Positions 40,436 to 64,000 of a stretch of 64,000 bases of DNA are shown one piece after another. Source of the DNA: Cronobacter universalis NCTC 9529 (lineage in GTDB: Bacteria > Pseudomonadota > Gammaproteobacteria > Enterobacterales > Enterobacteriaceae); the NCBI RefSeq assembly GCF_001277175.1, contig NZ_CP012257.1:186001-250000 (forward strand), read 5' to 3'. Made by a program: the position numbers and the translations under genes. The notes under the pieces were generated by a model. That model had not been told where the DNA came from. It saw only the letters and a list, made by a program, of their open reading frames with translations, and ran no database searches. Position 1 is the stretch's first letter. Each line of letters opens with the position of its first letter.

Positions 40436-40447
40436 GGCCGCCTCCGG

Positions 40448-43638: not shown

Positions 43639-43650
43639 GGCGTCCTCCCC

Positions 43651-48029: not shown

Positions 48030-48069
48030 GTTTGGTTAAGAGGGAAAATAATTTGTGAAGGACTAGCGA

Positions 48070-49274: not shown

Positions 49275-49389
49275 TTTGTAGTCCTTACTTTGGTTAGCGC
49301 ACAGCCGGAGGTGGCATATGTTTCCTATCGGCTGGCGCCTGTGCAGTTGTCACGCCCGAAAGTGTACTGTATAGTACGTTACATAAACG
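49275..49389. promoter_or_regulatory. lysR-tetR divergent control region with TetR-type operator
   Basis: GTACT, GTAT, AGTAC (49364-49377) is a perfect 5-bp inverted repeat 12 bp before the tetR start, a position expected for autorepression. The rest of the gap is short and must hold both promoters. Confidence 0.55.
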
Positions 49390-50085
49390 ATGAAGCCAAG
49401 GACAATCGAAGTGGTAAAGGATCAGCGCACATCACCGACGAAGCATCGAACCGCAAAGGGCGCACAGCGCCTTCAGGATCTAATCTCCGTTGCGGCTGAG
49501 CTATTCCTCGAACGCGGTTTCGACAGCGTCGCCGTGGATGACTTGATCGCCCGCGTGGGAGGTTCACGCAGCAACATCTATAGCCACTTCGGCGGCAAGG
49601 AAGGACTGTTCAAGGAGGCCATGATCAGTCTGTGCGCAGACGTGGCGAAGCCGCTGGAGCAGTTGCGAATCGGGAATGGCGGGCCAGAAGAAGTGCTTCC
49701 ATTGCTCGGCAAGCGGCTACTACAGTCCGCACTGTCCCCACGCACGCTTGCCCTGCACCGTCTCTTAGTCAATGAAGGCAGGCGCTTTCCCGATGTTGCA
49801 CAGGCAATGTGGGAAGTGAGTTACGGCAAGGCCATCGAGATCCTCTCCGACTGGATCGAGACGCAACAGCAATCGGGAAAAGACCTGTCTGGCGCGGTTC
49901 CAGCCAAAGTGCTTGCCGAACATTTCATTGGCCTGGTAGCCGGCCATGCCAAGCTGCTGGCAGCTTCAGGACTCCGTTCGTCACCTTTGTCCAACAGCGA
50001 GATCGACCGAATTGTGGGCCACGCCGTCCAGACCTTTCTTCATGGCTCATTGAGCCGTGGAGTGGAGCGTAGAGAGAAGAAATAA
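49390..50085 (+). CDS. TetR/AcrR-family regulator
   Basis: A 231-residue repressor: helix-turn-helix about residues 27-75 (LISVAAELFLERGFDSVAVDDLIARVGGSRSN region) and an AefR-like ligand-binding C-domain. Heads the plus-strand cargo. Such regulators often control efflux and detoxification genes; the RND operon further along is a plausible target as well as the hydrolase gene 130 bp downstream. Confidence 0.9.
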   Translation: MKPRTIEVVKDQRTSPTKHRTAKGAQRLQDLISVAAELFLERGFDSVAVDDLIARVGGSRSNIYSHFGGKEGLFKEAMISLCADVAKPLEQLRIGNGGPEEVLPLLGKRLLQSALSPRTLALHRLLVNEGRRFPDVAQAMWEVSYGKAIEILSDWIETQQQSGKDLSGAVPAKVLAEHFIGLVAGHAKLLAASGLRSSPLSNSEIDRIVGHAVQTFLHGSLSRGVERREKK

Positions 50086-50216
50086 CAACTGAATTTTTCT
50101 AGTCCGGGGTTAGCACTCACTCCATGAATCGGTCCTCTACCTCCAACGGAGAGAGCGATCCGGCCGAATCCAAGGCGAGATCAATTTGTCAACATTAAGG
50201 ATGAGGTACACACATC

Positions 50217-51461
50217 ATGATCGATCAGAAAGATAAATTTGACACTAAACAAGTACACGGCGCAAAGGCCAGCGCGGCGACTTCAGCACAGGTCGGAAAG
50301 CATTGGGCAGACCCTGGTTTTTTCAATGACAACGTACTGCTTGACGCACTGATCAAGCACATCCTGAGCCTGATGCCCTACGGCATGACCGATTTCGGCG
50401 AGGTCATGGACGTGGTGCACCAGCTCAAGGGCAGCGACGAAGAGGCTTGGGTCAGTGCCTGGGCCGCGCTGGCAGGCCGGCTGCAGGACAGGGCCGAAGC
50501 GGCTGACCAAAAAGGCAAGCGCGTCACCGCCGCCAGCGCCTTTCTTCGGGCCTCCACCTACTGGCGCTGCGCGCTCCTGTATTTCAGCGACTTCGAGGAC
50601 AAGCGCATGAAGGAGTACGCGGTCGCCAGCGCCTCGTGCTACGAGCGCTACATCAAGCTGTCGGGCTACCCCGGCGAGCGCATCGAAATCCCCTACGAGG
50701 GCGACTTCCTTCCCGGCTACTTCTACCGGTCGCCCCATGCGGGCGCAAAGGCACCACTGCTCATCGTCACGCCTGGCCGGGATACCTGGGCCGAAGACAC
50801 CCGCTGGGTGTGCGAAGGCGCGCTGCAACGGGGTATCCACTGCCTGACCTACGATGGTCCGGGCCAGGGATTCGCGCTGCGACTGAACAATCTCACCTTC
50901 CGCCCGGATTGGGAAAAGGTCGTCAGCCCGCTGATCGACTTCGCGCTGGAAAAATTCCCGGAAATCGACGCCTCCAACATCGCGCTGATGGGACTGAGCT
51001 TCGGCGGCTATCTGGCGCCGCGCGTGGCCGCGTTCGACAAGCGCATCAAGCTCTGCATCACCGATCCCGGCAACATCAGTTGGGGCCGCCAGATCATCGC
51101 GCAACTGGAGCGCTTCGCTGACCACCCGCTGGACCAGATTCCGGAGCAGATGCGCAACCTGGTGCGTGACTACGCCTGGAAGCACGGCGTGCCGAACACG
51201 ATCAAGGATGTGGTGCAGGCCCTCCAGCCCTACGACAACTCGGCCGTTCTGGACAAGGTGACCTGCGAGACGCTCGTGCTGGACGGCACCGGCGAGGTCT
51301 TCCATGGAGCCAAGCCGTTCTACGACGCCTTGCAAGGTCCCAAGGAATACCTGTTGTTCGACGAGACCTCGACGGCGCAGTCGCACTGCCAGATCGGCGG
51401 TTATGCGACGGCCACCGAATACATCTTCGACCGGATCGCCGAACGGTTGGGTTGCGCGTGA
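50217..51461 (+). CDS. Alpha/beta hydrolase, FrsA/DUF1100-like
   Basis: A 414-residue enzyme with an N-terminal helical cap (about 35-150) and a C-terminal alpha/beta hydrolase core. The nucleophile is probably S261 in MGLSFGGY; D356 (VLDGTGE) and H390 (SHCQIGG) are the likely partners. The layout recalls the C-C bond hydrolases such as 2,6-dihydropseudooxynicotine hydrolase and fungal Ayg1. Substrate unknown. Good ribosome site TAAGGATGAGG. Confidence 0.8.
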   Translation: MIDQKDKFDTKQVHGAKASAATSAQVGKHWADPGFFNDNVLLDALIKHILSLMPYGMTDFGEVMDVVHQLKGSDEEAWVSAWAALAGRLQDRAEAADQKGKRVTAASAFLRASTYWRCALLYFSDFEDKRMKEYAVASASCYERYIKLSGYPGERIEIPYEGDFLPGYFYRSPHAGAKAPLLIVTPGRDTWAEDTRWVCEGALQRGIHCLTYDGPGQGFALRLNNLTFRPDWEKVVSPLIDFALEKFPEIDASNIALMGLSFGGYLAPRVAAFDKRIKLCITDPGNISWGRQIIAQLERFADHPLDQIPEQMRNLVRDYAWKHGVPNTIKDVVQALQPYDNSAVLDKVTCETLVLDGTGEVFHGAKPFYDALQGPKEYLLFDETSTAQSHCQIGGYATATEYIFDRIAERLGCA

Positions 51462-51516
51462 TCCGCGCGTCCCGCTCGACCTGACAACCTCACGCAACTC
51501 CCATCAGGAACACGAA

Positions 51517-52386
51517 ATGAATTCTTCGCTTCCCAGTACCAATGAGTTCCGCCTTGGCGGAGAGCTGCCCATCAACCGGCTGGGCTTTGGCGCCATGCGC
51601 CTGCCTTGCAACGGCTTCCGTGGTCCGGCGCGAGACCCGGAAACCGGGCGTGCCGTGCTGCGCCGCGCAGTCGAACTCGGCGTCAACCACATCGATACGG
51701 CCGAGTTCTACCAGAGCACCGATGGTTCGGTACGCGCCAATGCGCTCATCCGTGAGGCGTTGTATCCCTATCGGTCCAACCTGGTGATCGCGACCAAGGT
51801 CGGGGTCGTGTTCAACCCGGATGGCAGCCATCGACCGGCCACCGGTGCCGACATGCGCAGGCTCGTCGAAGAGAACCTGTCGAGTCTTGGCCTGGACCGT
51901 CTCGATCTGGTGTACCTGCGCATCGGCGAGATGACGGTGCCTCACGGCGAGTCGCTGGCCGAACGCTTCGAGGCGCTGGCCGCACTGCGTGCAGAAGGCC
52001 TGATTCGGCATCTGGGCATCAGCAACGTCGATATCGGGCACTTCAACGAGGCCCGCGCCATCGCCCCGATCGCGGCCGTGCAGAACAACTTCCATATCGC
52101 CAAGCGCGAGGACCTGAGCCTGCTGAAGGCCTGCGAAGAAGCCGGCATCGCGTTCTGCCCGTTCTTCCCGCTCGGTGGGGGCATGGGGGAGATCGACGAC
52201 GGGCGGCTGGCCCGGGTCGCCGGAAGGCATGGTGCCACGCCGTCCCAGATCGCGCTGGCCTGGTTGTTGGCATCCTCCCCGGTGATGCTGGCGATCCCCG
52301 GCACGGGCTCCGTCGAGCACCTTCAGGAGAACGTCGCCGCCGGTGGCATTTCCCTCACCGAGGAAGACCATGCCGAACTGGCATGA
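51517..52386 (+). CDS. Aldo-keto reductase, YdbC-like
   Basis: A 289-residue NADPH-type AKR. Tetrad positions D60, Y65 and K94 are present; the usual catalytic His is R135 (LVYLRIG), as I recall for the YdbC branch. Start 51517 follows CATCAGGAACACGAA; an earlier frame runs into the preceding gene. Its end overlaps the next gene by 17 nt. Confidence 0.88.
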   Translation: MNSSLPSTNEFRLGGELPINRLGFGAMRLPCNGFRGPARDPETGRAVLRRAVELGVNHIDTAEFYQSTDGSVRANALIREALYPYRSNLVIATKVGVVFNPDGSHRPATGADMRRLVEENLSSLGLDRLDLVYLRIGEMTVPHGESLAERFEALAALRAEGLIRHLGISNVDIGHFNEARAIAPIAAVQNNFHIAKREDLSLLKACEEAGIAFCPFFPLGGGMGEIDDGRLARVAGRHGATPSQIALAWLLASSPVMLAIPGTGSVEHLQENVAAGGISLTEEDHAELA

Positions 52387-53698
52387 ATTCGGCGTCCGCT
52401 CGGTCATCTCGCGCTTAGCGCGAGGTGCCGCGCTGCTCGCCGTGGTTCTCGGAGCAGTCAGCCTGTCGTCCGGGTGCGCAACGGTGGATTTCAGCGAGTC
52501 TCCGGTCGGCTCGGTGAGCTTTGAAAAGTATCGACGCGACACGATCGCTCAAATCCAGGCCGGCCGCAGTTTCCAGCTTGCCGACCGGGATGCCGAGTTG
52601 GCGTGGAATGCCCCACAGGAGTGGCGGCCCGCTGAATCCGAGGCGGGAGCGCGTCCGCGAAAAGGGATTCTGTTCGTGCATGGCCTCGGCGATTCGCCCT
52701 GGTCCTTCCACGACGTGGGGCCGCCATTGGCGAGCCAAGGATTACTGGTGCGAACGGTGCTCCTCCCCGGCCACGGCACGCGGCCCGACGACTTGCTGAC
52801 GACAACGGCGGAGCAATGGCGCCAAGTGGTCTGGGAACAGGCCATGGCGCTGCAGCGCGACGTCGATGGCGAGGTGTACCTAGGAGGGTTCTCCACGGGA
52901 GCGAACCTGGTCCTTGACTACGCGTATTCGCATCCCGAGATCGCAGGACTGGTGCTGTTCTCGCCCGGCTTCAAGAGCATGCCCTTCGATTGGCTTGCGC
53001 CGCTGGCGGCCCGTGTCCGGCCCTGGCTCATCAAGCCTGACGGGACGATTCCGATGCAGAACGCCGTCAAGTACTTCAACGTCCCGTCCAACGGGTTCGC
53101 ACAGTTCTATCGGACCAGCGCCAACGCACGCCGGCTGCTGCGCGACCGGGCCTATGAGAAGCCGGTCTTCATGGTCGTTGCCGAGCACGATTCCGTGCTG
53201 GATACCGACTATCTGTTCGATGTCTTCCAGCAGCGCTTCACGCACCCGGACAGCCGCTTGGTCTGGTACGGAGGCGAGCCGGACGGACTGACGGATCGCC
53301 GGCGCGTTCTGGTCCGGCAGGACCGGCTGCCCGAATGGCGCATCAGCCAGTTCTCGCACATGAGCGTCACGTTCTCTCCCGCTAACACTGTTTATGGGGA
53401 CGGCGGCAGCCTGCGCCTGTGCCTGAACGGCTTGCGTGAAGGCGACACGCAGGCCTGCGAAAAGGGGGAGCCCGTCTGGTACTCGGACTGGGGCTATCGA
53501 GAGGAAGGGAAGATCCACGCACGGCTCACCTTCAACCCGTATTTCGAGTGGCAGACCTCGGTGATGCTGGCGATGCTTGACACCGCAACCACATCCGTCA
53601 TCTCGCAGGACGTCACGTTGAAGACCTCCACGAGCGAACGCTCCCGGCCAGCATCGCCCCCTCGATCCATTGACATTCCAAAAGCAGCCGAAAGGTAA
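52370..53698 (+). CDS. Exported alpha/beta hydrolase lipoprotein
   Basis: A 442-residue hydrolase with an N-terminal signal and lipobox SSGC (Cys36), so it is probably anchored in the envelope. Core motifs: VHGLGDSP oxyanion loop (about 103-110), nucleophile S175 in GGFSTGAN, FMVVAEHDSVLD around the acid. The His is likely in FSHMS. The start at 52370 lies inside the AKR gene. May act on exogenous esters or lipids; substrate unknown. Confidence 0.8.
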   Translation: MPNWHEFGVRSVISRLARGAALLAVVLGAVSLSSGCATVDFSESPVGSVSFEKYRRDTIAQIQAGRSFQLADRDAELAWNAPQEWRPAESEAGARPRKGILFVHGLGDSPWSFHDVGPPLASQGLLVRTVLLPGHGTRPDDLLTTTAEQWRQVVWEQAMALQRDVDGEVYLGGFSTGANLVLDYAYSHPEIAGLVLFSPGFKSMPFDWLAPLAARVRPWLIKPDGTIPMQNAVKYFNVPSNGFAQFYRTSANARRLLRDRAYEKPVFMVVAEHDSVLDTDYLFDVFQQRFTHPDSRLVWYGGEPDGLTDRRRVLVRQDRLPEWRISQFSHMSVTFSPANTVYGDGGSLRLCLNGLREGDTQACEKGEPVWYSDWGYREEGKIHARLTFNPYFEWQTSVMLAMLDTATTSVISQDVTLKTSTSERSRPASPPRSIDIPKAAER

Positions 53699-53707
53699 AG
53701 AGACACC

Positions 53708-54637
53708 ATGAAAAGAGTGCAGTTCAGCAGCTACGGCGGCCCCGAGACGATGGCATTCGCCGAATATACACTTCCCCCACTCGAAGCCCGACGGGTGCGC
53801 GTGCGCGTGAAAGCCGCTGCGATCAATCCGCTGGATTGGAAGCTGCGGCGCGGTGTCATGAAGTTCGTCACCGGACGGAAGTTTCCCCAGGGTATGGGTT
53901 CGGACTTCGCTGGGGTAGTGGAAGAAGTCGGCACCGATGTCACCGACTTCCGTGTGGGCGACGAAGTTTTCGGCACGGTCGAGATTAAGAGGCAAGGTGC
54001 GTTTGCCGAGGTCGTCGATGCCGACGCCAAGCTCATTGTCCGCAAGCCCGCCTCGCTCACGTTCAGCGAAGCCGCGTGCCTCCCCATCCCGGCGGCAACC
54101 GCCTGGGCGGCCGTCGTCGGCGTCGCGCGCGTGGGCCACGGTTCGAGAATCTTCATCCACGGCTGCAGCGGCGCCGTAGGCAGCAGCGCGGTCCAACTCG
54201 CGCAGGCGCATGGCGCGCAGGTGTGCGGCGCGTGCGGCGATGCTTCGATCGCTGCAGCGAGGGCTGCTGGCGTCAATCCGGTGTTTCCTTACTCGGAGAA
54301 GGCCTCGTTTGCATCCGACGGCCTCTACGACGCGGTGTTCGACACGCTCGGTACGCTGGCCGTCGCTGATGGACTGGCGATGCTCAAGCCCAAGGGCCGC
54401 TTCATCGACATCAATCCGACTCCGGCCAGGATGCTGCGCGGCCTCATCTCCGGGCGCTACCGGATGACGTTCTCGACAGGCGGTTTCAAGAATCTGGAGG
54501 AAATCGCCAAGTTAGCCGGCGACGGAAAGCTGCGTTCTTCCATTGGTCTGGAAGCGCCGTTTGCCGATGCGCTGTCAATGATCAAGGACACGGAAGTCGG
54601 CCGGCGCCCGCCAGGCCGAATCGTGTTGATCATGTAA
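53708..54637 (+). CDS. MDR-family NAD(P)H oxidoreductase (quinone reductase-like)
   Basis: A 309-residue zinc-free MDR enzyme. MKRVQFSSYGGPETMAF at the N-terminus, GSDFAGVVEEVG, and the nucleotide loop HGCSGAVGSSAVQLA near 149. Reduces quinones or enones in known relatives. Last gene of the plus-strand arm, 9 bp after the lipoprotein hydrolase gene. Confidence 0.88.
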   Translation: MKRVQFSSYGGPETMAFAEYTLPPLEARRVRVRVKAAAINPLDWKLRRGVMKFVTGRKFPQGMGSDFAGVVEEVGTDVTDFRVGDEVFGTVEIKRQGAFAEVVDADAKLIVRKPASLTFSEAACLPIPAATAWAAVVGVARVGHGSRIFIHGCSGAVGSSAVQLAQAHGAQVCGACGDASIAAARAAGVNPVFPYSEKASFASDGLYDAVFDTLGTLAVADGLAMLKPKGRFIDINPTPARMLRGLISGRYRMTFSTGGFKNLEEIAKLAGDGKLRSSIGLEAPFADALSMIKDTEVGRRPPGRIVLIM

Positions 54638-54744
54638 GCGTACCTGGAGGGAAAGCCAATTTTCTGATTTTGCCGAATCTATAGATCGCGCTTGAGGCTA
54701 TCCGCATTTAATTTCTGAGGGTGAGAACGCCAAAGTGTGCGGAG

Positions 54745-55764
54745 TCAATTCTCCGGGCACTTTTTATCACACGAATCGACCAACCTCTCAGGGTCGCTCT
54801 GCTTCGTCAGTTCCAGTGGAAACGCTGCTTTAACCGAGAAAACCCCCGTATCCGGGCGCGTTCCGAACCGCGCATCCCCAACAGTGACGTTGGTGTTCTC
54901 ACCATTTCCTTTGATCATCGCGAAGGGGAACCGAGACCAGTACAGGAAATCGGCCATCTGCTTGCTCTGCCCAGCCACCAGAGCAATCGCCGACTGGTCC
55001 ATGTGAGAGGAAACAAGTTCCTGGTCCAGCGATACATGAGGGTTGGGAAGCCAGCGAAAATCACCAAAGCCATACTGATGCTCTGTCTGCACGACGATCC
55101 TCCGCCTGAACGGGTCGGCAAATACCGGATTCGCCAGAACCTGCTGCGGTTGACCCAGACCAGACTCCTTGAACTCGCGGGCTACACGTTCTTCCACAAC
55201 TCGCCCACTCGCGACCATTGCGCCGCTATAGAGTGTGGTTACCAGAAGGGCCACTATCGCCGGGCTGGATGTCCGACCTGCGCCCGAGCGCTCGCGGCGC
55301 CGTGATAGCCAGATTCCTATGCCAAGGGCGAGCCAGATCCATGGATCGGCGATGAAAAGCGCATCGCCATAAAACCAACGCTCCGAGAACGGCATCAGAA
55401 GCCGGATGCCCCAGCTATTCATCCAGTCCAGCAAGGGGTGCGAAAGCGCGCCGATATAGCTGAGCAACAAGAGCTGCCCCGGCTGAACGGCGGGGCGCGC
55501 GCCTGGTCGTGAACCTCTACGGGTTTGCCATCTGTCGAACCACAGCAGCACGAGCGTTAGAACCGCTGGCAGCACGAGCAACCCGATCGGGCCATGTGTC
55601 CAGCCACGCCTGCACGAGAGAGCCTCGCCGAAAGCGATACACAAGACATCCACGTCGGACAGATTCGCGCCGATCATCAATGCCGGCATCGCGAGCGCCG
55701 TTCGCCGCTTGAGCCCGGCCTGCCCCAAAGCGGCGCCGACCAAAGTGTGAGTCAGGTTGTCCAC
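54745..55764 (-). CDS. YdjM-like membrane-bound metal-dependent hydrolase
   Basis: A 339-residue protein of the YdjM/DUF457 family: MDNLTHTLVGAALGQAG at the N-terminus, further metal-type His/Asp in GANLSDVDVL, GWTHGP and GALSHPLLDW, and at least five hydrophobic segments. Converges on the MDR gene across 107 bp. Last gene of the minus-strand arm. Confidence 0.85.
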   Translation of the reverse strand: MDNLTHTLVGAALGQAGLKRRTALAMPALMIGANLSDVDVLCIAFGEALSCRRGWTHGPIGLLVLPAVLTLVLLWFDRWQTRRGSRPGARPAVQPGQLLLLSYIGALSHPLLDWMNSWGIRLLMPFSERWFYGDALFIADPWIWLALGIGIWLSRRRERSGAGRTSSPAIVALLVTTLYSGAMVASGRVVEERVAREFKESGLGQPQQVLANPVFADPFRRRIVVQTEHQYGFGDFRWLPNPHVSLDQELVSSHMDQSAIALVAGQSKQMADFLYWSRFPFAMIKGNGENTNVTVGDARFGTRPDTGVFSVKAAFPLELTKQSDPERLVDSCDKKCPEN

Positions 55765-55819
55765 TACAAGAAGCTCGCAGTTTGGTTGTCTATTGGGCGA
55801 ATCGGTTCTCTCAAGAAAC

Positions 55820-56734
55820 TCATGGAGACGACTCCTCCACGCCCACCATTACGGCACTCTCGCGCCACAAGCGCTCCTGGGCCTCACGGTTGCGAGCCAG
55901 CTCCGAGGGATCGGGAAAGGTGGGATTTCCCTTGACGAGGGAGATGTAAATGCGCCCCTCCGGCAGGGAAAGCGTTCCGAGCGCCACGTCGGCCAGCATC
56001 CGACCCGAGTGCTCGGGCGCATTCATCACGAACTCGGGGCGGAAGATACCGACCAGAGGGAAGATCGTGCGCATCACGATGCTAAGGAGCGCCTTCTGCA
56101 ACGCAGACGCCTCGCGGCCGGCAGCGCCACCCGTTAGGCCCGGGTTGAAGGCGATGACCTCGATCTGGCGCGCCACCACCGTGTCATGCCGGGCCAGGGA
56201 CAGTGCCGTCATGAGGTTGCACAATTTCGACGCCGTGTAGGAGCGTATGCCGTCACCCGAACCGCCTTTCGGCGGATACGCCCACTCCTGAAGGTCGAGC
56301 GTCTTGGGACCGATCGCTTTGATGGGCGGGTTGTGCATGTTGCTCGACGTGATCACCACTCGACCCCGCTCAGCGATATGCGGCAGCAGCAGACGCGCCA
56401 GCAGATAGTGAGCAAGGTGATTCACGGCGAACGTGAGGCCATAACCCTCGGCGCTACGCTGATCGGCGGGTGTGCCATGCAGGCCTGCATTGAGGACAAG
56501 GATGTCAATACGTTCATCCCCAAGCTGCCGTATCACGGCGCCGGCAAAGTCGCGGACGCTGGCCAGAGAGGCAAGATCAAGCGGCAAGACATCAACGCCT
56601 TTCGGCACGGCGCGATTTTCTCCACGAGCGCCTATGATGACCCTTGTGTCAGGGGAAGCGGCCAGATCCTGCAGCGTGAATTGGCCAAACCCACTTGTGG
56701 CTCCGGTCATCACGACGACGTACTTCGAGTTCAT
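55820..56734 (-). CDS. Short-chain dehydrogenase/reductase
   Basis: A 304-residue SDR similar to retinol-dehydrogenase or protochlorophyllide-reductase types. TGATSGFG (G11, G15, G17) binds NAD(P), NAG is at 82-84, and S131, Y166 and K170 form the active site. Start 56734 (MNSKYVVVMT) is preceded by CGAGGTGAGACCG; the much longer open frame upstream overlaps the LpxR-like gene and is not coding. Confidence 0.88.
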   Translation of the reverse strand: MNSKYVVVMTGATSGFGQFTLQDLAASPDTRVIIGARGENRAVPKGVDVLPLDLASLASVRDFAGAVIRQLGDERIDILVLNAGLHGTPADQRSAEGYGLTFAVNHLAHYLLARLLLPHIAERGRVVITSSNMHNPPIKAIGPKTLDLQEWAYPPKGGSGDGIRSYTASKLCNLMTALSLARHDTVVARQIEVIAFNPGLTGGAAGREASALQKALLSIVMRTIFPLVGIFRPEFVMNAPEHSGRMLADVALGTLSLPEGRIYISLVKGNPTFPDPSELARNREAQERLWRESAVMVGVEESSP

Positions 56735-56813
56735 CGGTCTCACCTCGTTTCTCCTTGAGTCAGGCCACCTGCGCGACGGTCTAGTCGCTGTATCGAGAAC
56801 GCGATTTCTTCCA

Positions 56814-58043
56814 TCAGAACCGCCTGCCAATGGTGAAGCTCCCAAAGGCCGGTCGCTCGCGCTGTCCATCGAACTCGCGGGTCCGGTGGTAGCGCGCGAA
56901 GGCGAAACGCCAGTGGCCATGGGTAAATGCGATACCGAAGCCGATGTCTGCAACCAGTGGGCGCTTGTCCACGCTGTGGCTGGAGCGGAAGGTATTTCCG
57001 TCGAGCGTGATGTCGCGCAGGACCCAACGCGCATCGGCAGCGACGAAGAAATGGCCGCGCCACCCCTGCGTCGCGCTCGTGCGGATCGGGGATGTGTTCT
57101 CGCCGGCCGGCCGCATTGGCGCTGTACCAAAGTCGTCCGGCAGCAAATAGCCGAAACGGAACTCGATCCCGGTGTTGGCGTAAGTGGCGAAGTTGCCCAG
57201 GCTGCCGCCCCAATGGGTAATCGCGTCCCACCGCCATGGCCCGGCAGGCTGCTGCAGCGCGAACCGCTTTCGTCGCTCGTGAATGAACTGCACCACAGGT
57301 TCGTTTTGCAGTTGGTTGTCCCAGCCATTGAACCTGTCCACGCCAATGACGCCGTGCCACCAGTCCTGAACTTCTCCGGCTTTGGCAGCAGGCCCCACGA
57401 TGCCTAACCGTAGTTGCGAAGTCCGCAGGTCGTCGCCTTTTCGAGCGTTGTAGCCCACGCTGAACATCAATGCGCCGGCGTAAGGCCGGTCGTCTGCAAT
57501 CAGTTCGTGCGGCTCGCGGTCGGTGGGCGTGTACATCGTCTGACCGAGCCCAATAGTCATGTTCAACTCATCGAACCCGCCAGGCTGCAAGCCGGAGAAC
57601 GCGTGGTTCAACCGTCTGGCGATATCGGGCAGGCTCGGGTCATCCGCACGGTGGATTAGATTCGGCGAAACCAGCGTGAGCAGGAAGCCATTGGAGTACC
57701 CCTGGTCCTGCCCGAGGCCGCCGAACATGTCGTTGTCGATTCGCAGATTCACCGTGGATTCGGCCGCAATGCCTTTGCGGTCGCAGCGCTCCTCAGCCAG
57801 CGCCGAGCCACTCCAGAGCATTGCCCCAATCGCCATCCAGCCTTTCCACGCAGGGGATTCACTCGCTACATGCGGCAAGCGGCCAGAGCGCTTCGCCGCC
57901 AAGCGAACGGAACACAGCGTTTCCAGCCCAGGCACTTCTGCCTGGCACATGGCAGGTTCGCATGCGCCGTCGATAAAGCGATGATGGCGTGGCGTTGCAG
58001 TGGGTGACGGCGTGGGTCGCCGCTGTAGAGCCGGCTTATTCAT
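56814..58043 (-). CDS. LpxR-like lipid A deacylase (DUF2219)
   Basis: A 409-residue outer-membrane-type protein of the LpxR family, which removes the 3'-acyloxyacyl chain of lipid A. LRIDNDMFGG and GYSNGFLLTL correspond to the conserved Asn/Asp active-site strands, and the protein ends FGSFTIGRRF with the terminal Phe of beta-barrels. The signal (MAIGAMLWSGSALA) begins about 68 residues after the ATG, so the real start may be later, or the N-terminus is unusual. A TTG 30 bases upstream also keeps the frame. Confidence 0.75.
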   Translation of the reverse strand: MNKPALQRRPTPSPTATPRHHRFIDGACEPAMCQAEVPGLETLCSVRLAAKRSGRLPHVASESPAWKGWMAIGAMLWSGSALAEERCDRKGIAAESTVNLRIDNDMFGGLGQDQGYSNGFLLTLVSPNLIHRADDPSLPDIARRLNHAFSGLQPGGFDELNMTIGLGQTMYTPTDREPHELIADDRPYAGALMFSVGYNARKGDDLRTSQLRLGIVGPAAKAGEVQDWWHGVIGVDRFNGWDNQLQNEPVVQFIHERRKRFALQQPAGPWRWDAITHWGGSLGNFATYANTGIEFRFGYLLPDDFGTAPMRPAGENTSPIRTSATQGWRGHFFVAADARWVLRDITLDGNTFRSSHSVDKRPLVADIGFGIAFTHGHWRFAFARYHRTREFDGQRERPAFGSFTIGRRF

Positions 58044-58995
58044 TTGGACGTCGCACTTCTGCAGTTTCGCCAACGGCGAGAACCCGCTTTTCTGAAGCAG
58101 TCAGCCCCAGTCTTTTCCACTCCGCCGCCAGGCGAACTGGAGGTTCATCGAGCGGTTCGTAGGTCAACTTGAACGTCCCCCAGTGCATGGCGAAAAAGCT
58201 CCGCGCACCCAAGTCTAGATAGGCTTGGACAGCTTCCTCTGGATTCATGTGTTGCGCCCGCATGAACCATGCCGGGTCGTAGGCGCCGATCGGTAGAAGC
58301 GCCGCGTCAATCGCCGGAAAGCGACGACCGATCTCCCGGAAGCCGTCGAAATATCCCGTATCGCCCGAGTGATAAATGCTGGCGGATGGCCCCTCGACGA
58401 CGAATCCGCCCCATAGCGTTTCGTTGGCGTCGGTGAGGCCACGACGGCTGTAGTGCTGAGCAGGCACAAAAGACACTTTGGCGGAGCCAAGTTCAGCGGA
58501 TTCCCACCAATTCAGTTCGCTTGCGGGAATGCCCTTCTTCGCCAGGAACGCCTGCATGCCCAGCCCGGCGATCACCGGCGCACCGACCTGCTGTACGGAG
58601 GGAAGATCGAGGTGGTCGTAGTGGTTGTGCGTGATCAGCACGGCATCGATGGGCGGCAGGTTTTCGGGCAGCACGCCGGCCGGAACATTTCGTCCCCCCG
58701 GGCCCAGGGCAAGGTCGCCAAAGATCGGATCGATGAGGAACGACTTGCCCTCTAGCTGCACCAGCCAGCTTGCATGTCCAATCCAGGTGAGGCGAGCGCC
58801 TTCGCCCGGTCCCGGCGGACTGGCGATCGCTACGAGGTCGGTCTCGACACATGGGACGGGTGCTTTTCTTGGAACACCGCGGCCACGCCCGGCTAGGCTG
58901 TCCAGGACCAACATGCGAAATGCCGGCAGCACAGTACCAGGGGCCGCGCTGCCGTCGAGATTCCTGAAACGTCTGGAGCCATTGCGAGTTGCCAT
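58036..58995 (-). CDS. Metallo-beta-lactamase-fold hydrolase (NAPE-PLD/RomA-like)
   Basis: A 319-residue MBL protein with HNHYDH (H123, H125, D127, H128), SGDTGYFDGF and HWGTFKLTYEPLDEPP, the pattern of the NAPE-PLD/UlaG/RomA branch. Relatives cleave N-acyl phosphatidylethanolamine or other phosphodiesters. I chose ATG 58995 (MATRNGSRRFRNLDG) with a GGGAGGGG ribosome site. Overlaps the LpxR-like start by 8 nt. Confidence 0.85.
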   Translation of the reverse strand: MATRNGSRRFRNLDGSAAPGTVLPAFRMLVLDSLAGRGRGVPRKAPVPCVETDLVAIASPPGPGEGARLTWIGHASWLVQLEGKSFLIDPIFGDLALGPGGRNVPAGVLPENLPPIDAVLITHNHYDHLDLPSVQQVGAPVIAGLGMQAFLAKKGIPASELNWWESAELGSAKVSFVPAQHYSRRGLTDANETLWGGFVVEGPSASIYHSGDTGYFDGFREIGRRFPAIDAALLPIGAYDPAWFMRAQHMNPEEAVQAYLDLGARSFFAMHWGTFKLTYEPLDEPPVRLAAEWKRLGLTASEKRVLAVGETAEVRRPNE

Positions 58996-59160
58996 AGCTA
59001 CCCCTCCCACAAAAAGAAGATCGAGATGAACGCAGTTGGCAGTGGCTGGCCAGATAACGCGCTCCAGCACACATTCCCAATGCCCTGCGTCCCGCTCATT
59101 TCGAGTCGAATCCGAAACACAGCAAAAGCCCAGCAACGGGCCATGCCATGAATCGCCTTC

Positions 59161-59997
59161 TCAGAACCGATACAGGTAGCCGAGTCCCACGCCGTACTGC
59201 GTGCTCTTTTCGACCAGCGGGCTGTTGCGGATCGAACTGCCCATGTGCTTGGCGCCCATATCGAGGAACACCGTGTGCTTGGGCACAGGCTGCCAGTCAA
59301 CGCGCAGTCCGATTTCGGTATTGACCGAGGAACTGCCGCTGTAGGCCGGGCGCCAGCTTTGCGCTTCGTCCGACCTCACGCCGTAGTAGTAATCCACGTA
59401 CTTGCTGTCCACCCACTCGGCCGCGAGCCGCGGTGTCAAACCGATCGGGCCTGCGGTGAAACGCCGATCGATCTGCAGCGTCGCCCGCGTTCCCTTGCTG
59501 TTGCTCATGGCATCGGTCAGCACTTCGGCAGACAGGTTGGCAATGCCGCTGCGCCAGATGGCGGCACCGCCGACCCAGAAGCTGGAATCCCGGTCGCGCA
59601 TACCCGCGAAGTACGGCGAGTCGCCAGAATCGAACTCATCCATGGCATACCGGCCACGCAGCCTGAAAGACACCGGCCCCAACGACGGGAGCTTGACGTC
59701 CAGGCCAGGGCCGGCCACCTGAATCCACTTATTCTCATAGGTGATCATCGGCAAGCCACGCACGCGGTTATCGAAGTCCCGGTAAACGCGGTACTGCATG
59801 CCACCGGCGACGCCGATCCCCCATGTCGATTCACTGCGCTCGGCTTCGGCCATGGCCTGGCCTCTCGCGGACCTCTTCGTATCGTCGGTCTGAGCAACGG
59901 CGGCGGGAGTGGAGAAAATGCCGGCGACCAGAATCGGCAGCGCCGCATAAGACGGCTGGCGTCGCAGCCGGGCTGCGCAATGAAGGCGTGATGACAT
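59161..59997 (-). CDS. MipA/OmpV-family outer-membrane protein
   Basis: A 278-residue protein: signal peptide to about residue 35 (ending AAVAQ), then a beta-barrel of the MipA/OmpV type ending GVGLGYLYRF with C-terminal Phe. Relatives scaffold murein synthases or act as small porins; often found beside efflux or stress genes. Confidence 0.85.
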   Translation of the reverse strand: MSSRLHCAARLRRQPSYAALPILVAGIFSTPAAVAQTDDTKRSARGQAMAEAERSESTWGIGVAGGMQYRVYRDFDNRVRGLPMITYENKWIQVAGPGLDVKLPSLGPVSFRLRGRYAMDEFDSGDSPYFAGMRDRDSSFWVGGAAIWRSGIANLSAEVLTDAMSNSKGTRATLQIDRRFTAGPIGLTPRLAAEWVDSKYVDYYYGVRSDEAQSWRPAYSGSSSVNTEIGLRVDWQPVPKHTVFLDMGAKHMGSSIRNSPLVEKSTQYGVGLGYLYRF

Positions 59998-60254
59998 GAT
60001 TGATCCCTTTCAAGGAGAACGTGAAGAATGCCTCTCCCCATGCAGGGGATCGGCTGCTGGCGGACCGCGCCATCGAACTGCGCCGATAGGCTCGCGGACC
60101 GTCGGCAGACGGCCGCACTTCACCGTCTGCCTGACTTCCATCTCGTTTTGACGACCCGACGTCGTCTCGCACCAGTCCGGCCACACGCTGCTCGCCATGA
60201 AGGGAGGCGACGGACGCGCTGCGGGAGTGCCGCATCGTGGCGAAGGCTGCTGTG
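59998..60254. other. Gap between the RND and MipA/OmpV genes
   Basis: About 257 bp. Open frames here run across both flanking genes in poor frames and have no family resemblance; I see no supported gene. It is long enough for a separate mipA promoter on the minus strand. Confidence 0.5.
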
Positions 60255-63200
60255 TCATCGTTCAAGCGCCCCCTCGCCGGCGGTGGCGCGCTCGGTGTGT
60301 CGAAAGAATCCGAGCGATGCCAGCCATTTCTCGAACTTGTCCACGTACAGGAACACGGCAGGCACGACGAGCAAGCTCAATGCGGTCGATGTGATCAGGC
60401 CGCCGATCACCGCCATGGCCATGGGCCGGCGGAAGCTCGAATCCGCGCCAAGCCCCAGCGCGATGGGCAACATGCCGGCGATCATCGCGATGGTGGTCAT
60501 CACGATGGGGCGCGCTCGCTTGTGGCACGCGTCCAGCAAGGCATCGTGAACAGACAAGCCGCGATCGCGCATGCCGATGACCGCGTACTCGACGAGCAGA
60601 ATGGAGTTCTTAGTGACGATCCCCATCAGCATGACCAGCCCGATCATTGAAGGCACGCTCAACTGGCTGCGCGTGACCAGCAGCGCGAGAAACGCGCCGC
60701 CGATGGACAGCGGTATGGCCGAGAGAATGGTGATCGGCTGAAGAAAGTCCCTAAACAGCAGCACCAGCACGCAGTAGATGCACAGGACACCAACCACGAG
60801 CGCCATACCGAAGCCCGCGCCGAGTTCGGCAACGATTTCTGCATCGCCGGCCTCGACCACCTTCACGCTGGATGGCAGGGACTTAATCGAAGGCAGGTTG
60901 GCGGCTGCTGCTTGCGCCGTTCCAAGTGCGGTGCCCCCCAAGTCAGCCGAAATGGTGACGTTGCGAAGGCGGTCGTGGCGGTCGATCTGCGCAGGACCAC
61001 TCTCCACGGACAGACTGGCAACGCTGGCAAGCGGCACCGGCCCGTCGCGGCCCGGTACGCGCATGTTGCCGATCGTGTCAATGTCCTGCCGTGCTGCATC
61101 GGGAATGCGCGCACGGATATAGACCTGCCGGTTGTCCAGGTTCAGGCGCGCGACCTGCGAATCGAAATCGCCGCTCGTCGCCACCCGTACCACGTCGCCG
61201 ATCGCTGCGGTCGTCACGCCACGCTCGGCCGCGCGTTCCGGGTCGGGGCGGATGATGATCTCGGGACGTTCCAGGCTTGCGGTGGAGGCGATGCCCGTGA
61301 GGCCCTTGACGTCGCGCAGTTCGGATTCCACTGCCTCTGCGCTCGCCTTGAGCACCTCGGCATTGTCGCTGGCGAGGATGATCGAAAGTTTCTCCCCCGG
61401 CCCTCCACCACCAACAGCGAAGCGCGCGCCTGCAACGTTGAGCAGGCGCTCTCGCACAGCTTTCTCAATGACCTGCTGCGATGGCCGATCGCCACGCGGC
61501 CCCATCGTGAGCGTGAGCGACGCCCGCCGAACCTCGCCAGCACGCGTGCCTCCTGGCCCGGCACTCTGCGCAGTGCCCACCGTGGCGAAGACGTGGGCGA
61601 TGCCATCCACATCGCTGACGGCCTTGCGCGCAGACTCGGCAACCGCCAATGTGTCCGCCATCGAACTGGCCGGCGGCAACTCGATGCTCACGGTCGTCGT
61701 GCCACTGTCGGAGGCCGGGATGAAGCCCGTCTCGATGAAGGGTACAAGGGCGAGCGAAGCGGCCAGAAAGATGACCGCGCCGCCCAAGGTGGTCTTGCGG
61801 TGCTTCAGGCACCAGCGCGCCGTTGCCATGTACCAGCGCATGACCCGGCCATCTTCTTTCTCGGGAATCGGCTCGGGCTTGAGCAGGTAGGCTGCCATCA
61901 TTGGCGTGAGCAAGCGCGCGACGAGCAGCGACGCGAGCACGGCGATCACGGCGGTCCAGCCGAACTGCTTGAAGACCAAGCCGCCAATGCCGCTCATCAT
62001 GGCGGTCGGCAGGAAGACGACCACCAAGCTCATGGTGGTCGCCATGACGGCCAGGGCGATCTCGGTCACGGCATCCTCTGCTGCCTTCCGGATCGATTTG
62101 CCCATGTGCCGGTGGCGCTCGATGTTCTCGATCTCGACGATGGCGTCATCGACCAGGATGCCCACGACCACCGCAAGCGCCAGCAGCGTGACGGTATTGA
62201 GCGTGAAGCCCAGCCAGGCCATGGCCGCGAACGCGGGCAGGATGGACAGCGGTAGCGCGGTCGAGGCGATCAGTGTCGCGCGCCAGTCGCGCAGGAAGAG
62301 CCAGACGACGATCATCGCCAGGATGGCGCCTTCGTACAGCATCGCCATCGAACCTTCGTACTGCTCCAGCGTCTGGCCGACCGACCCAGAAATCTCCGTC
62401 AGGCTGAGCGCCGGATCGGCCTGCTGGAGGCCGGCCAGGGCCTCGCGAACGCCATCGGCCAGCCGCACTTCGTCAAAGCCCCTGGCGCGATACACGCTGA
62501 AGCCGACCACGTGCTTGCCATCGAGCAAGGCCGCGTGCGTGGGATCAGCCTGACCATCGATTATGGTCGCGATCTGGTCCAGCCTGAAGCTCGTGCCGTT
62601 CGACAGCGAGATCCGCAGGCCCGCAAGCTCCGATGCTTGGCGAACCGTGGCGATCGTGCGAACCGACTGCTCCTCGCCGCCGAGCTGTCCGCGGCCACCC
62701 GAGGACTGCTGCTGTACCTGGCGCAACGCTCGGGAGACATCCGCCGCGGTGATGCCAAGGGCAGACATGCGCAGCGGATCGACCTCGATCCGAACCTCGC
62801 GTTCGATGCCGCCAAGCCGCTCGAACCGGCCAACACCGGACACGCCGAGCACGGTCTTGGCGACTGTATCGTCCACGAACCAGGAAAGCTGCTCCTCGCT
62901 GAGACGGGAGGAAGCGATGGCATAGGTGAGCACCGGAGCACCGACGCTGTTGGACGCGCTGACCGTCGGTTGCAGCAGATCAGGCGGGAGGTCGGAGCGA
63001 ATGCCGTCCACCGCGTTCTTGGTCTCGATCAGCGCGTCCGACAGATTCTTTTCCAGTACGAATTGCACCTGGATCGACACCAAGCCATCCGTGACTGATG
63101 TGGTCAGATGGTTCAGCCCGCTCAAGGTCGCGAGCGCGTCCTCGACCTTGCGTGCGACCTCCGTTTCGAGTTGAGCGGGGGCCGCCCCCGGCTGCGACAA

Positions 63201-63344
63201 CGCTACCGTAACCATCGGCAGATCGAGGTCGGGCAAGTCCTGCGTGGGCAGCTTCTGGAATCCCCACAATCCGGCGAGCGCCAGCAGCGCGAACAGCAGG
63301 ATCGAGGGTATGGGATTGCGAATGGACCAGGTGGCGAAGTTCAT
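60255..63344 (-). CDS. HAE-1 family RND efflux transporter
   Basis: A 1029-residue proton-driven RND pump. Hydrophobic segments at about 12-30, then six after a 300-residue periplasmic loop, a second loop (about 545-855) and a second set of six. Proton-relay Asp pair in GILVDDAIVEIENIERH (TM4) and the TM10 motif GIVTKNSILLVEYA with its Lys are present. PDLDLPMVTV and LSGLNHLTTS are typical of the MdtB/MexK-like class. Overlaps the adaptor gene by 4 nt; no outer-membrane channel gene follows. Confidence 0.93.
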   Translation of the reverse strand: MNFATWSIRNPIPSILLFALLALAGLWGFQKLPTQDLPDLDLPMVTVALSQPGAAPAQLETEVARKVEDALATLSGLNHLTTSVTDGLVSIQVQFVLEKNLSDALIETKNAVDGIRSDLPPDLLQPTVSASNSVGAPVLTYAIASSRLSEEQLSWFVDDTVAKTVLGVSGVGRFERLGGIEREVRIEVDPLRMSALGITAADVSRALRQVQQQSSGGRGQLGGEEQSVRTIATVRQASELAGLRISLSNGTSFRLDQIATIIDGQADPTHAALLDGKHVVGFSVYRARGFDEVRLADGVREALAGLQQADPALSLTEISGSVGQTLEQYEGSMAMLYEGAILAMIVVWLFLRDWRATLIASTALPLSILPAFAAMAWLGFTLNTVTLLALAVVVGILVDDAIVEIENIERHRHMGKSIRKAAEDAVTEIALAVMATTMSLVVVFLPTAMMSGIGGLVFKQFGWTAVIAVLASLLVARLLTPMMAAYLLKPEPIPEKEDGRVMRWYMATARWCLKHRKTTLGGAVIFLAASLALVPFIETGFIPASDSGTTTVSIELPPASSMADTLAVAESARKAVSDVDGIAHVFATVGTAQSAGPGGTRAGEVRRASLTLTMGPRGDRPSQQVIEKAVRERLLNVAGARFAVGGGGPGEKLSIILASDNAEVLKASAEAVESELRDVKGLTGIASTASLERPEIIIRPDPERAAERGVTTAAIGDVVRVATSGDFDSQVARLNLDNRQVYIRARIPDAARQDIDTIGNMRVPGRDGPVPLASVASLSVESGPAQIDRHDRLRNVTISADLGGTALGTAQAAAANLPSIKSLPSSVKVVEAGDAEIVAELGAGFGMALVVGVLCIYCVLVLLFRDFLQPITILSAIPLSIGGAFLALLVTRSQLSVPSMIGLVMLMGIVTKNSILLVEYAVIGMRDRGLSVHDALLDACHKRARPIVMTTIAMIAGMLPIALGLGADSSFRRPMAMAVIGGLITSTALSLLVVPAVFLYVDKFEKWLASLGFFRHTERATAGEGALER

Positions 63345-64000
63345 GGCTTGGCCGCTCCTGCCGGACGGCCTTGGGAGATGCGCACCAGATCACGGTCCTT
63401 GAGGAACCCTGCGCCCTGGACGACGACGTGTTCATCTTTGCCAAGCCCGTCGGTGATCTCGACCTCCCGGCCATTGCGCCGGCCGACAGTGACGCTTCGC
63501 AGCGACACCCGGGGCGTTGCGCTGGCGTCGGCCAACGCGAGCACATGGCTGCGCCCATCGCGAATGACGACGCTCTCGGCGGGCACGACCAGCGCCGCGC
63601 CGCTCCCCAGCCCAAGGCTGCCGCTGGCGTACATGCCAGCCCGGGCCGAGCTACCTGGTCGGAGGTCGGCATAGACGATGGCCAGGCGCGAGGCGCTGTC
63701 CAGCACGGGCGAAGTCTGTCGAACGGTCGCCGTCGCGGTGTTGCCGTCGGGAAGTTCAAGCGTGACTTCCTGGCCGATCTTGACTTGGGCCAGTTGTCCC
63801 GCCGTCAGCTCGCCACGCCATTCCAGGCGCCCCTGGCGAATCATCCGGAACAATTCCTGGCCCACCGGGACGACGGTGCCAAGGGTCGCCGTTCTGGCGC
63901 TGATGACACCATCATCGGGCGCCCTGACGTCGGTGTAGCGCAGCCGTAGCGCATTGGCCGCGAGCAAGGCATCGGCGGTCTTGGATTGGGTCACGAGCTG
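63341..64000 (-). CDS. RND periplasmic adaptor (MFP), N-terminus beyond window
   Basis: The last about 219 codons of a membrane fusion protein; the gene continues past 64000. RYTDVRAPDDGVISARTATLGTVVPVGQELF is the returning lipoyl-like half motif, followed by a beta-barrel domain (EWRGELTAGQLAQVKIGQEV) and membrane-proximal domain (GRRNGREVEITDGL). It would connect the RND pump to an outer-membrane channel. Confidence 0.92.
   Translation of the reverse strand, partial: QLVTQSKTADALLAANALRLRYTDVRAPDDGVISARTATLGTVVPVGQELFRMIRQGRLEWRGELTAGQLAQVKIGQEVTLELPDGNTATATVRQTSPVLDSASRLAIVYADLRPGSSARAGMYASGSLGLGSGAALVVPAESVVIRDGRSHVLALADASATPRVSLRSVTVGRRNGREVEITDGLGKDEHVVVQGAGFLKDRDLVRISQGRPAGAAKP

What the first reader, a model, noticed from the sequence alone, without database searches (positions are those of the whole stretch)
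49275..64000. ICE cargo: a two-armed envelope, detoxification and efflux island
Seen: two convergent same-strand arms. Plus: tetR, FrsA/DUF1100-like hydrolase, YdbC-like AKR, exported lipoprotein hydrolase, MDR reductase. Minus: MFP, RND pump, MipA/OmpV, NAPE-PLD-like MBL hydrolase, LpxR-like protein, SDR, YdjM-like membrane hydrolase. Known: these families act on esters, carbonyls, quinones, lipids and drugs. Inference: a mobile system that senses a hydrophobic compound (TetR), modifies it by hydrolysis and reduction, expels it (RND) and alters envelope lipids. I know of no named system with this composition.
Basis: partly seen in the sequence, partly recalled or inferred. Interest (0 to 1): 0.75.

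Follow-up and report, generated by a model that had tools for sequence, protein, structure and literature searches.

The report
Mobile detoxification and drug-efflux gene cluster
A transferable DNA element in a Cronobacter bacterium carries a set of enzymes plus a pump that probably recognise, break down and expel some greasy, reactive compound, and much of the same set turns up together, rearranged, in unrelated bacteria.

Summary
The window lies in a Cronobacter chromosome and holds about half of a 55-kb Tn4371-type ICE (35209 to window-equivalent 90459). A 99.8-99.97% identical copy sits at another site in a second species of the genus. The window edge cuts the cargo: the minus arm continues into an outer-membrane channel and a second TetR.

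The set recurs. All 4 fetched genome loci with an FrsA-like hydrolase above 80% identity (Bordetella, Pantoea, Acinetobacter, Variovorax) carry much of it; Pantoea repeats the two-arm layout, and Bordetella has the core of both arms in one run. More distant versions occur in rhizobia, an Agrobacterium plasmid and Flavobacterium. Order and membership vary; LpxR and YdjM are not core. Each arm starts with its own TetR and a conserved putative operator.

The 'FrsA' fails the FrsA cut-off; its solved relatives include polyketide-shortening hydrolases and a nicotine-pathway hydrolase. Best reading: an inducible system that reduces and hydrolyses a hydrophobic carbonyl or quinone-like compound and exports it through an RND pump. 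Substrate unknown. It is a new variant of a known kind (RND operons with co-encoded reductases, as in SmeU1VWU2X), not a new category.

The parts
35209..64000 (.). Part of the Tn4371-type ICE inside the window; the element runs on to window-equivalent 90459
   Evidence: 99.8-99.97% identical in three aligned pieces in another species of the genus at another site; 8-bp repeat ACAAAAAA at both ends; trb/traG genes
48330..49274 (-). LysR-type regulator, probably traR of the ICE backbone, not cargo
   Evidence: Pfam LysR_substrate and HTH_1; position next to traG as in Tn4371 elements (PMC2789088)
49364..49377 (.). Operator 1, palindrome GTACTGTATAGTAC, putative TetR1 site
   Evidence: Exact copy also just upstream of tetR1 in Pantoea and Variovorax; 0.0 expected in five shuffles of each of these three regions
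49390..50085 (+). TetR1, AefR-like C-terminal domain; first gene of the plus arm
   Evidence: Pfam TetR_C_7; 70% relatives in Pantoea and Variovorax at the cluster
50217..51461 (+). FrsA-like alpha/beta hydrolase, marker gene of the block; solved relatives include polyketide-shortening hydrolases
   Evidence: S261, D356, H390 (presumed triad) invariant in 47 of 47 aligned sequences
51517..52386 (+). Aldo/keto reductase, PRK10376/YdbC subfamily
   Evidence: 297 bits against cut-off 280; genome-wide best match is inside the cluster in 6 of the 7 named carrier genomes searched, the seventh (Flavobacterium) having no match at 1e-20
52343..53698 (+). Exported, probably lipid-anchored alpha/beta hydrolase (GFSTG), monoacylglycerol-lipase-like
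   Evidence: 62-73% in Bordetella, Pantoea, Variovorax clusters
53708..54637 (+). MDR-family reductase, near quinone oxidoreductases
   Evidence: genome-wide best match in cluster in 7 of 7 named carrier genomes searched
54745..55764 (-). YdjM-like membrane protein, accessory
   Evidence: Pfam YdjM; among the eight other regions only on the Agrobacterium plasmid, 53%
55820..56737 (-). Short-chain dehydrogenase/reductase
   Evidence: Pfam adh_short; 48-63% in two rhizobial, the Variovorax and the Flavobacterium regions
56814..58073 (-). LpxR-like outer-membrane protein, accessory (start codon uncertain)
   Evidence: Pfam LpxR 346.7 bits; no match in the eight other regions
58036..59136 (-). NAPE-PLD-like metallo-beta-lactamase-fold hydrolase, HNHYDH motif (start codon uncertain)
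   Evidence: 4qn9 E=8.6e-60; 82% Pantoea, 75% Bordetella in cluster; motif
59161..59997 (-). MipA/OmpV outer-membrane barrel
   Evidence: Pfam MipA; MipA beside the pump in Pantoea, Bordetella, Variovorax and Acinetobacter
60255..63344 (-). RND permease, HAE-1 type, unnamed subfamily
   Evidence: Pfam ACR_tran; below the cut-off of all 24 NCBIfam models matched
63341..64000 (-). RND adaptor (MFP), cut by the window edge; full gene to window-equivalent 64474, followed by OMF and tetR2 outside the window

Best explanation
The cargo is an inducible, horizontally spread detoxification-plus-efflux module. Shown by sequence: two TetR-led arms on a Tn4371-type ICE; a core that recurs with the FrsA-like hydrolase in eight other regions (AKR, MDR, RND and MFP in 7 of 8 each, MBL hydrolase in 7 of 8 and at the edge of the eighth), with MipA (4 of 8), SDR (4 of 8), lipoprotein hydrolase (3 of 8) and related TetRs in some versions; conserved palindromes in front of the TetRs. 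Inferred: a hydrophobic compound carrying carbonyl, enone or quinone groups enters the envelope and is bound by MipA and/or the TetRs. TetR1 releases operator 1 and TetR2 releases operator 2. In the cytosol AKR, MDR and SDR reduce carbonyls, enones or quinones, and the FrsA-like serine hydrolase cleaves a C-C (beta-diketone) or ester bond. The exported hydrolase and the MBL hydrolase cut lipophilic ester or amide conjugates. The tripartite RND pump expels parent compound and products. LpxR, YdjM, the lipase-like protein, abh2 and tetR4 are accessories of this copy.
For: Loci were picked by FrsA alone, yet 9 of 35 also hold at least three other cargo families, including all 4 with FrsA above 80% identity. 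Seven of these nine genomes were searched whole: the best AKR match lies in the cluster in 6 (73-89% against at most 47% elsewhere; the seventh has no AKR match) and the best MDR in 7 of 7 (46-84% against at most 42% elsewhere). Pantoea repeats the two-arm order; Bordetella has OMF-MFP-RND-MipA-MBL-lipoprotein hydrolase-FrsA-AKR-MDR on one strand behind tetR2. Putative operators. Motifs intact. FrsA-like fold near DHPON hydrolase, AntI, Wdyg1p, Ayg1p; MDR near quinone oxidoreductases. In Clostridia related hydrolases sit with MarR-type (7 loci) and TM1586-type nitroreductase-like (8 loci) proteins, or with an RND pump in L015 and L017, among 26 loci compared. At strict cut-offs FrsA-like is rare: 1 of 369, 1 of 398, 2 of 392, 1 of 149 genomes, all centre genomes or the ICE twin.
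Against: No substrate, inducer or phenotype is known; the functional chain is family inference. 26 of 35 FrsA-like loci lack three or more cargo families (12 of these 26 have under 20 kb in hand), so the hydrolase is not tied to this block. In Acinetobacter and Variovorax an MBL elsewhere in the genome scores slightly better than the one in the cluster, and on the Agrobacterium plasmid a 48% AKR lies away from the cluster against 52% in it. Variovorax, rhizobial and Agrobacterium pumps are only 51-52% identical, so the pump is exchanged. In Cronobacter operator 1 was not found before arm 2, nor operator 2 before arm 1, so co-response of the arms is not shown. The Acinetobacter lipoprotein-hydrolase match is fragmentary. 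The top Foldseek hit is SMU_737, named an acylaminoacyl peptidase, and true FrsA structures also match, so the fold does not settle the reaction.
Confidence: 0.68

Rival explanations
1. Catabolic island: the enzymes degrade a compound for growth and the RND pump is incidental.
For: Tn4371-family ICEs often carry catabolic genes (PMC2789088, passages); solved relatives of the FrsA-like protein include the nicotine-pathway enzyme DHPON hydrolase.
Against: No ring-opening oxygenase, CoA ligase or uptake transporter appeared among the 17 of 18 cargo proteins scanned; a pump recurs with the enzymes in 7 of 8 other regions; the regulators are TetR-type.
Confidence: 0.15
2. Two independent cargo units side by side: an AefR-type TetR/enzyme operon and a TetR2/RND efflux operon with envelope genes, answering different signals.
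For: Distinct TetRs and distinct putative operators for the arms; in Variovorax the enzyme arm at 65-87% identity sits beside a pump of only 52%.
Against: One collinear gene run in Bordetella behind an operator-2-like site, and RND-MipA-FrsA-AKR-MDR in one run in Acinetobacter.
Confidence: 0.3
3. Quorum-signal or lipid-mediator quenching (acyl-homoserine lactones, N-acyl ethanolamines, oxylipins): hydrolases and reductases inactivate acyl signals and the pump moves them.
For: NAPE-PLD-like MBL, monoacylglycerol-lipase-like hydrolase, MDR nearest to a chloroplast quinone-oxidoreductase homologue.
Against: None of the hydrolases meets a curated lactonase cut-off: the UilS lactonase model gives 20 bits for abh2 against a cut-off of 400.
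Confidence: 0.15
4. Chance accumulation of common enzyme families in ICE cargo, with no joint function.
For: AKR, MDR, SDR and TetR are common families; order and membership vary.
Against: Per genome the chance that the best AKR match falls within 12 kb of FrsA is about 0.3-0.6% (assuming random placement); it does so in all six named genomes with a match.
Confidence: 0.05

Closest known systems
SmeU1VWU2X efflux operon of Stenotrophomonas maltophilia
   Same: RND pump operon with co-encoded reductases of the SDR family, one of them implicated in relief of oxidative stress (PMC12189255, PMC8300704; passages).
   Different: LysR-regulated and MexEF-type; no alpha/beta or MBL hydrolases and no MipA are named in the passages read. 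The RND here is 25.9% identical to a plasmid OqxB, which I recall as a MexF relative.
MhqR/QsrR quinone-detoxification regulons of Bacillus and Staphylococcus
   Same: Dedicated repressors with quinone/nitroreductases and an alpha/beta-fold phospholipase/carboxylesterase (PMC6798810, passages); clostridial FrsA-like loci also pair the hydrolase with a MarR-type and a nitroreductase-like protein.
   Different: No RND pump in the passages read, a different hydrolase family, and dioxygenases that were not seen here; no common ancestry of the sets is claimed.
MipA-MipB/ParRS/MexXY-OprA polymyxin response of Pseudomonas aeruginosa
   Same: MipA/OmpV barrel working with an envelope lipoprotein to raise an RND pump (PMC10936184, abstract and passages); the Variovorax region has MipA, a two-component pair and an RND operon side by side (the two-component pair is my reading of the sequence).
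   Different: Here MipA is inside the pump arm and the lipoprotein is an alpha/beta hydrolase, not a beta-lactamase fold; polymyxin response is untested.
Tn4371-family ICEs with RND pump cargo (C. litoralis KT71, P. aeruginosa 2192)
   Same: Same backbone order and variable region next to traR/traG; RND pumps reported as cargo (PMC2789088, passages).
   Different: Those pumps are described as mex/oqx-related; no enzyme set like this one is described in the passages read.

Membership tests
Tn4371-type ICE | trb/traG transfer genes | tested here: met
   TrbI, CagX, VirB8, TrbL, CagE/TrbE-type, T2SSE and T4SS coupling-protein domains
Tn4371-type ICE | RlxS relaxase | tested here: inconclusive
   RlxS model 653 bits, E=6e-196, but its curated cut-off is 850
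Tn4371-type ICE | tyrosine integrase, ParA, RepA | tested here: met
   Phage_integrase, CbiA/ParA and RPA domains
Tn4371-type ICE | 8-bp direct repeat of the TTTTTCAT type | tested here: met
   ACAAAAAA at 35209 and window-equivalent 90452 is the reverse complement of TTTTTTGT, listed for the PA7 and K279a elements in PMC2789088
FrsA esterase | NCBIfam equivalog cut-off (477 bits) | tested here: not met
   46.8 bits; the wider Pfam FrsA-like model is met (39.7 against 22)
C-C bond (polyketide-shortening) hydrolases | fold and a Ser-Asp-His set | tested here: inconclusive
   Foldseek TM 0.68-0.71 of the query to 2jbw, 6hxa, 8qd7, 8qda, but SMU_737 ranks first and FrsA structures match too, so the fold is not diagnostic; S261, D356, H390 invariant
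C-C bond (polyketide-shortening) hydrolases | C-C cleavage activity | not testable with these tools
   needs enzymology
YdbC-type AKR (PRK10376) | NCBIfam subfamily cut-off 280 | tested here: met
   297.3 bits
LpxR lipid A deacylase | Pfam LpxR | tested here: met
   346.7 bits
LpxR lipid A deacylase | catalytic residues | tested here: inconclusive
   the His of 3fid HRIIG aligns with the query's HGVIG (that this His is catalytic is recalled); other residues not aligned
NAPE-PLD-like MBL | HxHxDH and similarity to NAPE-PLD | tested here: met
   HNHYDH at residue 170; 4qn9 206 bits
MexEF/OqxAB-type RND | NCBIfam OqxB or identity to OqxB | tested here: not met
   279 bits against 2200; 25.9% to oqxB
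MdtBC-type RND | NCBIfam MdtB/MdtC cut-offs | tested here: not met
   420.7 against 1584 and 438.5 against 1774
SmeU1VWU2X-like system | LysR control, MexEF-type pump, SDR genes in the pump operon | tested here: not met
   TetR at the head of the pump arm and a pump below the OqxB cut-off; an SDR in the pump arm is present

The most novel reading that the evidence does not exclude
This is an unnamed resistance system found across phyla, built around a C-C bond hydrolase that disarms one class of natural product (aromatic polyketides, acylphloroglucinols or quinones made by plants, fungi or soil bacteria). In proteobacteria it is joined to reductases, an outer-membrane MipA receptor and an RND pump; in gut and rumen Clostridia to nitroreductases or another pump. 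It spreads by ICE and plasmid.
Probability: 0.25. Interest if true: 0.75.

Novelty: new variant of a known kind. Interest (0 to 1): 0.5.

Why it matters
If right, one mobile cassette joins recognition, chemical inactivation and export of a hydrophobic toxin, and related cassettes occur in Enterobacterales, Burkholderiales, Acinetobacter and on an Agrobacterium plasmid. That would give a concrete, testable substrate hunt for hydrolases of the FrsA/DHPON group and a unit to look for in resistome and plant-microbe surveys. The conserved operators make the inducer screen straightforward.

Tried and rejected
tRNA-Pro as attachment site: no direct repeat of 14 bases or more between window 33851-34300 and the sequence downstream; the ends were found instead by comparison with the second copy. 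Close DNA copies of the cargo: 13 plasmid records matched, each over at most 3% of the query, within the RND gene; no FrsA match in E. coli genomes by blastn. Named pump type: rejected by NCBIfam cut-offs. Quorum-lactonase reading of abh2: 20 bits against 400. A shared operator linking both arms in Cronobacter: not found. MBL-FrsA fusions (P0077, P0117) first looked like proof of a link with the window's MBL; in P0117 the fused domain scores best as Lactamase_B, with Lactamase_B_2 below its cut-off (P0077 was not rescanned), so I do not count it as direct evidence for the NAPE-PLD-like gene. Cotton link (Pantoea gossypiicola and Variovorax gossypii by name, Agrobacterium salinitolerans from cotton root): too few cases to claim. 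Literature: searches (68 papers, 20 listed; 168 papers, 10 listed; 1 paper) showed no paper that, by title and abstract start, describes this gene set; searches returned none. The tool cannot search 'aldo/keto' or 'alpha/beta' with the slash, so these searches are weak.
Full report
WHAT IS THERE. The plus arm is tetR1, FrsA-like hydrolase, aldo/keto reductase, exported hydrolase, MDR reductase. The minus arm in the window is MFP, RND, MipA, MBL hydrolase, LpxR, SDR, YdjM. The window edge cuts the island. Reading on gives the rest of the MFP, an outer-membrane channel (NodT family), tetR2, a lipase-like protein (Abhydrolase_6 just below its Pfam cut-off), tetR3 (77% identical to tetR2), another alpha/beta hydrolase and tetR4, then the relaxase. 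In the extended sequence the minus arm reads tetR2-OMF-MFP-RND-MipA-MBL-LpxR-SDR-YdjM, starting with its own TetR.

HOST AND ELEMENT. Ten kilobases of the genome's second contig match mostly Cronobacter plasmids (30 of 50 records with a match; best hits C. dublinensis at 81% over 93-97% of the query, and C. sakazakii or C. malonaticus at about 91-92% over 75%), so the host is a Cronobacter species. The cargo lies in an ICE of the Tn4371 type: trb and traG genes, RlxS-like relaxase below its curated cut-off, a signal peptidase (TraF by position), ParA, RepA and a tyrosine integrase, in the order described for Tn4371 elements with the variable region next to traR and traG (PMC2789088, passages). 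The ends are 35209 and window-equivalent 90459, with ACAAAAAA at both; its reverse complement TTTTTTGT is a listed repeat of two Tn4371-like elements in that paper. GC is 63.9% against 57.9% on the left and 59.2% on the right. Another species of the genus (G005) carries the element at 99.8-99.97% identity in three aligned pieces with different flanks. I recall the flanking genes as hemY here and a pyruvate kinase there; no call names them.

IS IT A BLOCK? I searched a collection of 84,980 species genomes by six short peptide patterns of the FrsA-like protein; this is a sparse scan and its 35 loci are a floor. All 35 were compared with the cargo proteins. Nine of 35 hold at least three other cargo families: Bordetella, Pantoea, Acinetobacter, Variovorax, four rhizobial loci (three of them nearly alike) and Flavobacterium. 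The other 26 do not; 12 of these 26 have under 20 kb in hand. All four with FrsA above 80% identity are among the nine. I extended seven of the nine by 15-20 kb on one or both sides. Pantoea shows the same two convergent arms: tetR1-frsA-AKR-lipohydrolase-MDR, then an insert (a TetR, an OMF, and proteins that I read as HlyD, EmrB and PqiAB/MlaD-like), then MBL-MipA-RND-MFP-tetR2 on the minus strand, with the pump at 93% and the OMF only as a fragment. Bordetella has tetR2 facing OMF-MFP-RND-MipA-MBL-lipohydrolase-frsA-AKR-MDR, all on one strand. Acinetobacter has tetR-MFP-RND-MipA-frsA-AKR-MDR in one run. Variovorax has the enzyme arm, tetR2, SDRs and MipA beside a more distant pump. Of two plasmid records with FrsA above 60%, the one from A. 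pusense carries AKRs, MFP, RND, YdjM, alpha/beta hydrolases and TetRs; the one from A. salinitolerans carries a shorter set with no pump in the 21.7 kb shown. Across the eight regions other than Cronobacter, AKR, MDR, RND, MFP and MBL occur in 7 each (the eighth, the A. pusense plasmid, has an MBL at the edge of the stretch, but no MDR match; Flavobacterium lacks AKR, RND and MFP), MipA in 4 (one by Pfam only), SDR in 4, an intact lipoprotein hydrolase in 3, YdjM in 1, LpxR in none.

CONTROLS. Seven named carrier genomes and the plasmid record were searched whole. The best AKR lies in the cluster in 6 of 7 named genomes (Flavobacterium has no match at 1e-20), at 73-89% against at most 47% elsewhere. 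The best MDR lies in the cluster in 7 of 7, 46-84% against at most 42% elsewhere, that one a partial match. On the plasmid the best AKR (52%) is at the cluster, but a 48% one lies elsewhere, and there is no MDR match. For the MBL, the best is at the cluster in Bordetella, Pantoea, the rhizobial isolate, R. anhuiense, Flavobacterium and the plasmid, but in Acinetobacter and Variovorax another copy scores slightly higher. Random placement within 12 kb of FrsA has a chance of about 0.3-0.6% per genome. The hydrolase itself is rare: 1 of 369 class, 1 of 398 phylum, 2 of 392 family and 1 of 149 Acinetobacter genomes, the hits being the centre genomes and the ICE twin (cut-offs of 1e-60 to 1e-100). 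At the loose cut-off of 1e-3, 20 of 60 relatives matched, but apart from the window's genome and the twin none above 46.1 bits.

REGULATION. The exact palindrome GTACTGTATAGTAC stands just upstream of tetR1 in Cronobacter (49364), Pantoea and Variovorax, with 0.0 expected in five first-order Markov shuffles of each of these regions; with two mismatches allowed there are two more sites, one each in Pantoea and Cronobacter, away from the cluster. TGGCACNNNGTGCCA and near copies stand upstream of tetR2 and tetR3 in Cronobacter as pairs 35 bp apart, and upstream of tetR2 in Pantoea, Variovorax and Bordetella; a Bordetella copy with one mismatch also stands before the OMF gene run. With two mismatches allowed this second motif has a high background (9 found, 7.8 expected in the Cronobacter stretch), so only the exact or one-mismatch sites at TetR promoters carry weight; the Acinetobacter promoter has only a looser version. 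In Cronobacter operator 1 was not found before arm 2, nor operator 2 before arm 1.

CHEMISTRY. The FrsA-like protein fails the FrsA equivalog cut-off. Its nearest solved relatives by sequence are DHPON hydrolase, SMU_737, AntI and the Ayg1 type; that DHPON hydrolase cleaves a C-C bond is recalled, while 'polyketide shortening' is in the titles of the AntI and Wdyg1p/Ayg1p entries. A confident model (mean pLDDT 88.8) gives the same neighbours with SMU_737 first, and FrsA structures further down, so the fold does not fix the reaction. S261, D356 and H390 are invariant in 47 of 47 aligned sequences: the window's and 46 that I chose from the 120 listed of 458 found. The MDR is nearest to plant and bacterial quinone oxidoreductases; reduction of enones by such proteins is recalled. 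In Clostridia, FrsA-like relatives at about 50-56% sit with MarR-type (7 loci) and TM1586-nitroreductase-like (8 loci) proteins out of 26 loci compared (L022-L024 look alike; one member of each group was checked by Pfam), and in L015 and L017 with a pump, ACR_tran in L015. This points to electrophilic carbonyl or quinone-like compounds. It is inference, and I give the chemical class about 0.3.

COMPARISON AND VERDICT. RND operons with reductases (SmeU1VWU2X), quinone regulons with an alpha/beta hydrolase (MhqR), MipA tied to an RND response (P. aeruginosa) and RND cargo on Tn4371 ICEs are all in print (passages or abstract). The combination here, and its spread, I did not find in print. The pump meets no NCBIfam named-pump cut-off. 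So: a real, mobile, modular detoxification-plus-efflux set, a new variant of a known kind, substrate unknown. On checking this report I moved the C-C hydrolase fold test from met to inconclusive and corrected several counts; the odds did not need to change.

Noticed in passing
P0077 and P0117: FrsA-like hydrolase fused to an N-terminal metallo-beta-lactamase-fold domain of about 240 residues, apparently of a different type from the window's MBL.
   Followed up: partly
L015 and L017, around 10001-15200: Clostridial FrsA-like hydrolase directly followed by an RND pump (ACR_tran by Pfam in L015), with a TetR-like protein (just below the Pfam cut-off) and a flavodoxin-like protein nearby.
   Followed up: partly
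Window-equivalent 66204-66794 and 69112-69702 (L002:4204-4794 and 7112-7702): Two TetR paralogues 77% identical, each with a pair of TGGCAC/GTGCCA palindromes 35 bp apart upstream: a duplication.
   Followed up: partly
L066/L006 (Pantoea), between MDR and MBL: Insert with a TetR and a second exporter set (OMF, HlyD-like, MFS-like) and PqiAB/MlaD-like proteins in the middle of the block (names are my reading of the sequences); the OMF of arm 2 matches only as a fragment.
   Followed up: no
L007 (Acinetobacter) 2051-2375: Fragmentary matches to the lipoprotein hydrolase on the minus strand, apparently a decayed copy.
   Followed up: no
Sources of L006, L020, L050: Three carriers are linked to cotton by name or isolation source; too few to mean anything yet.
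   Followed up: no
L020/L071 (Variovorax) region: MipA followed by what reads as a response regulator and a histidine kinase, divergent from an OMF-MFP-RND operon.
   Followed up: no
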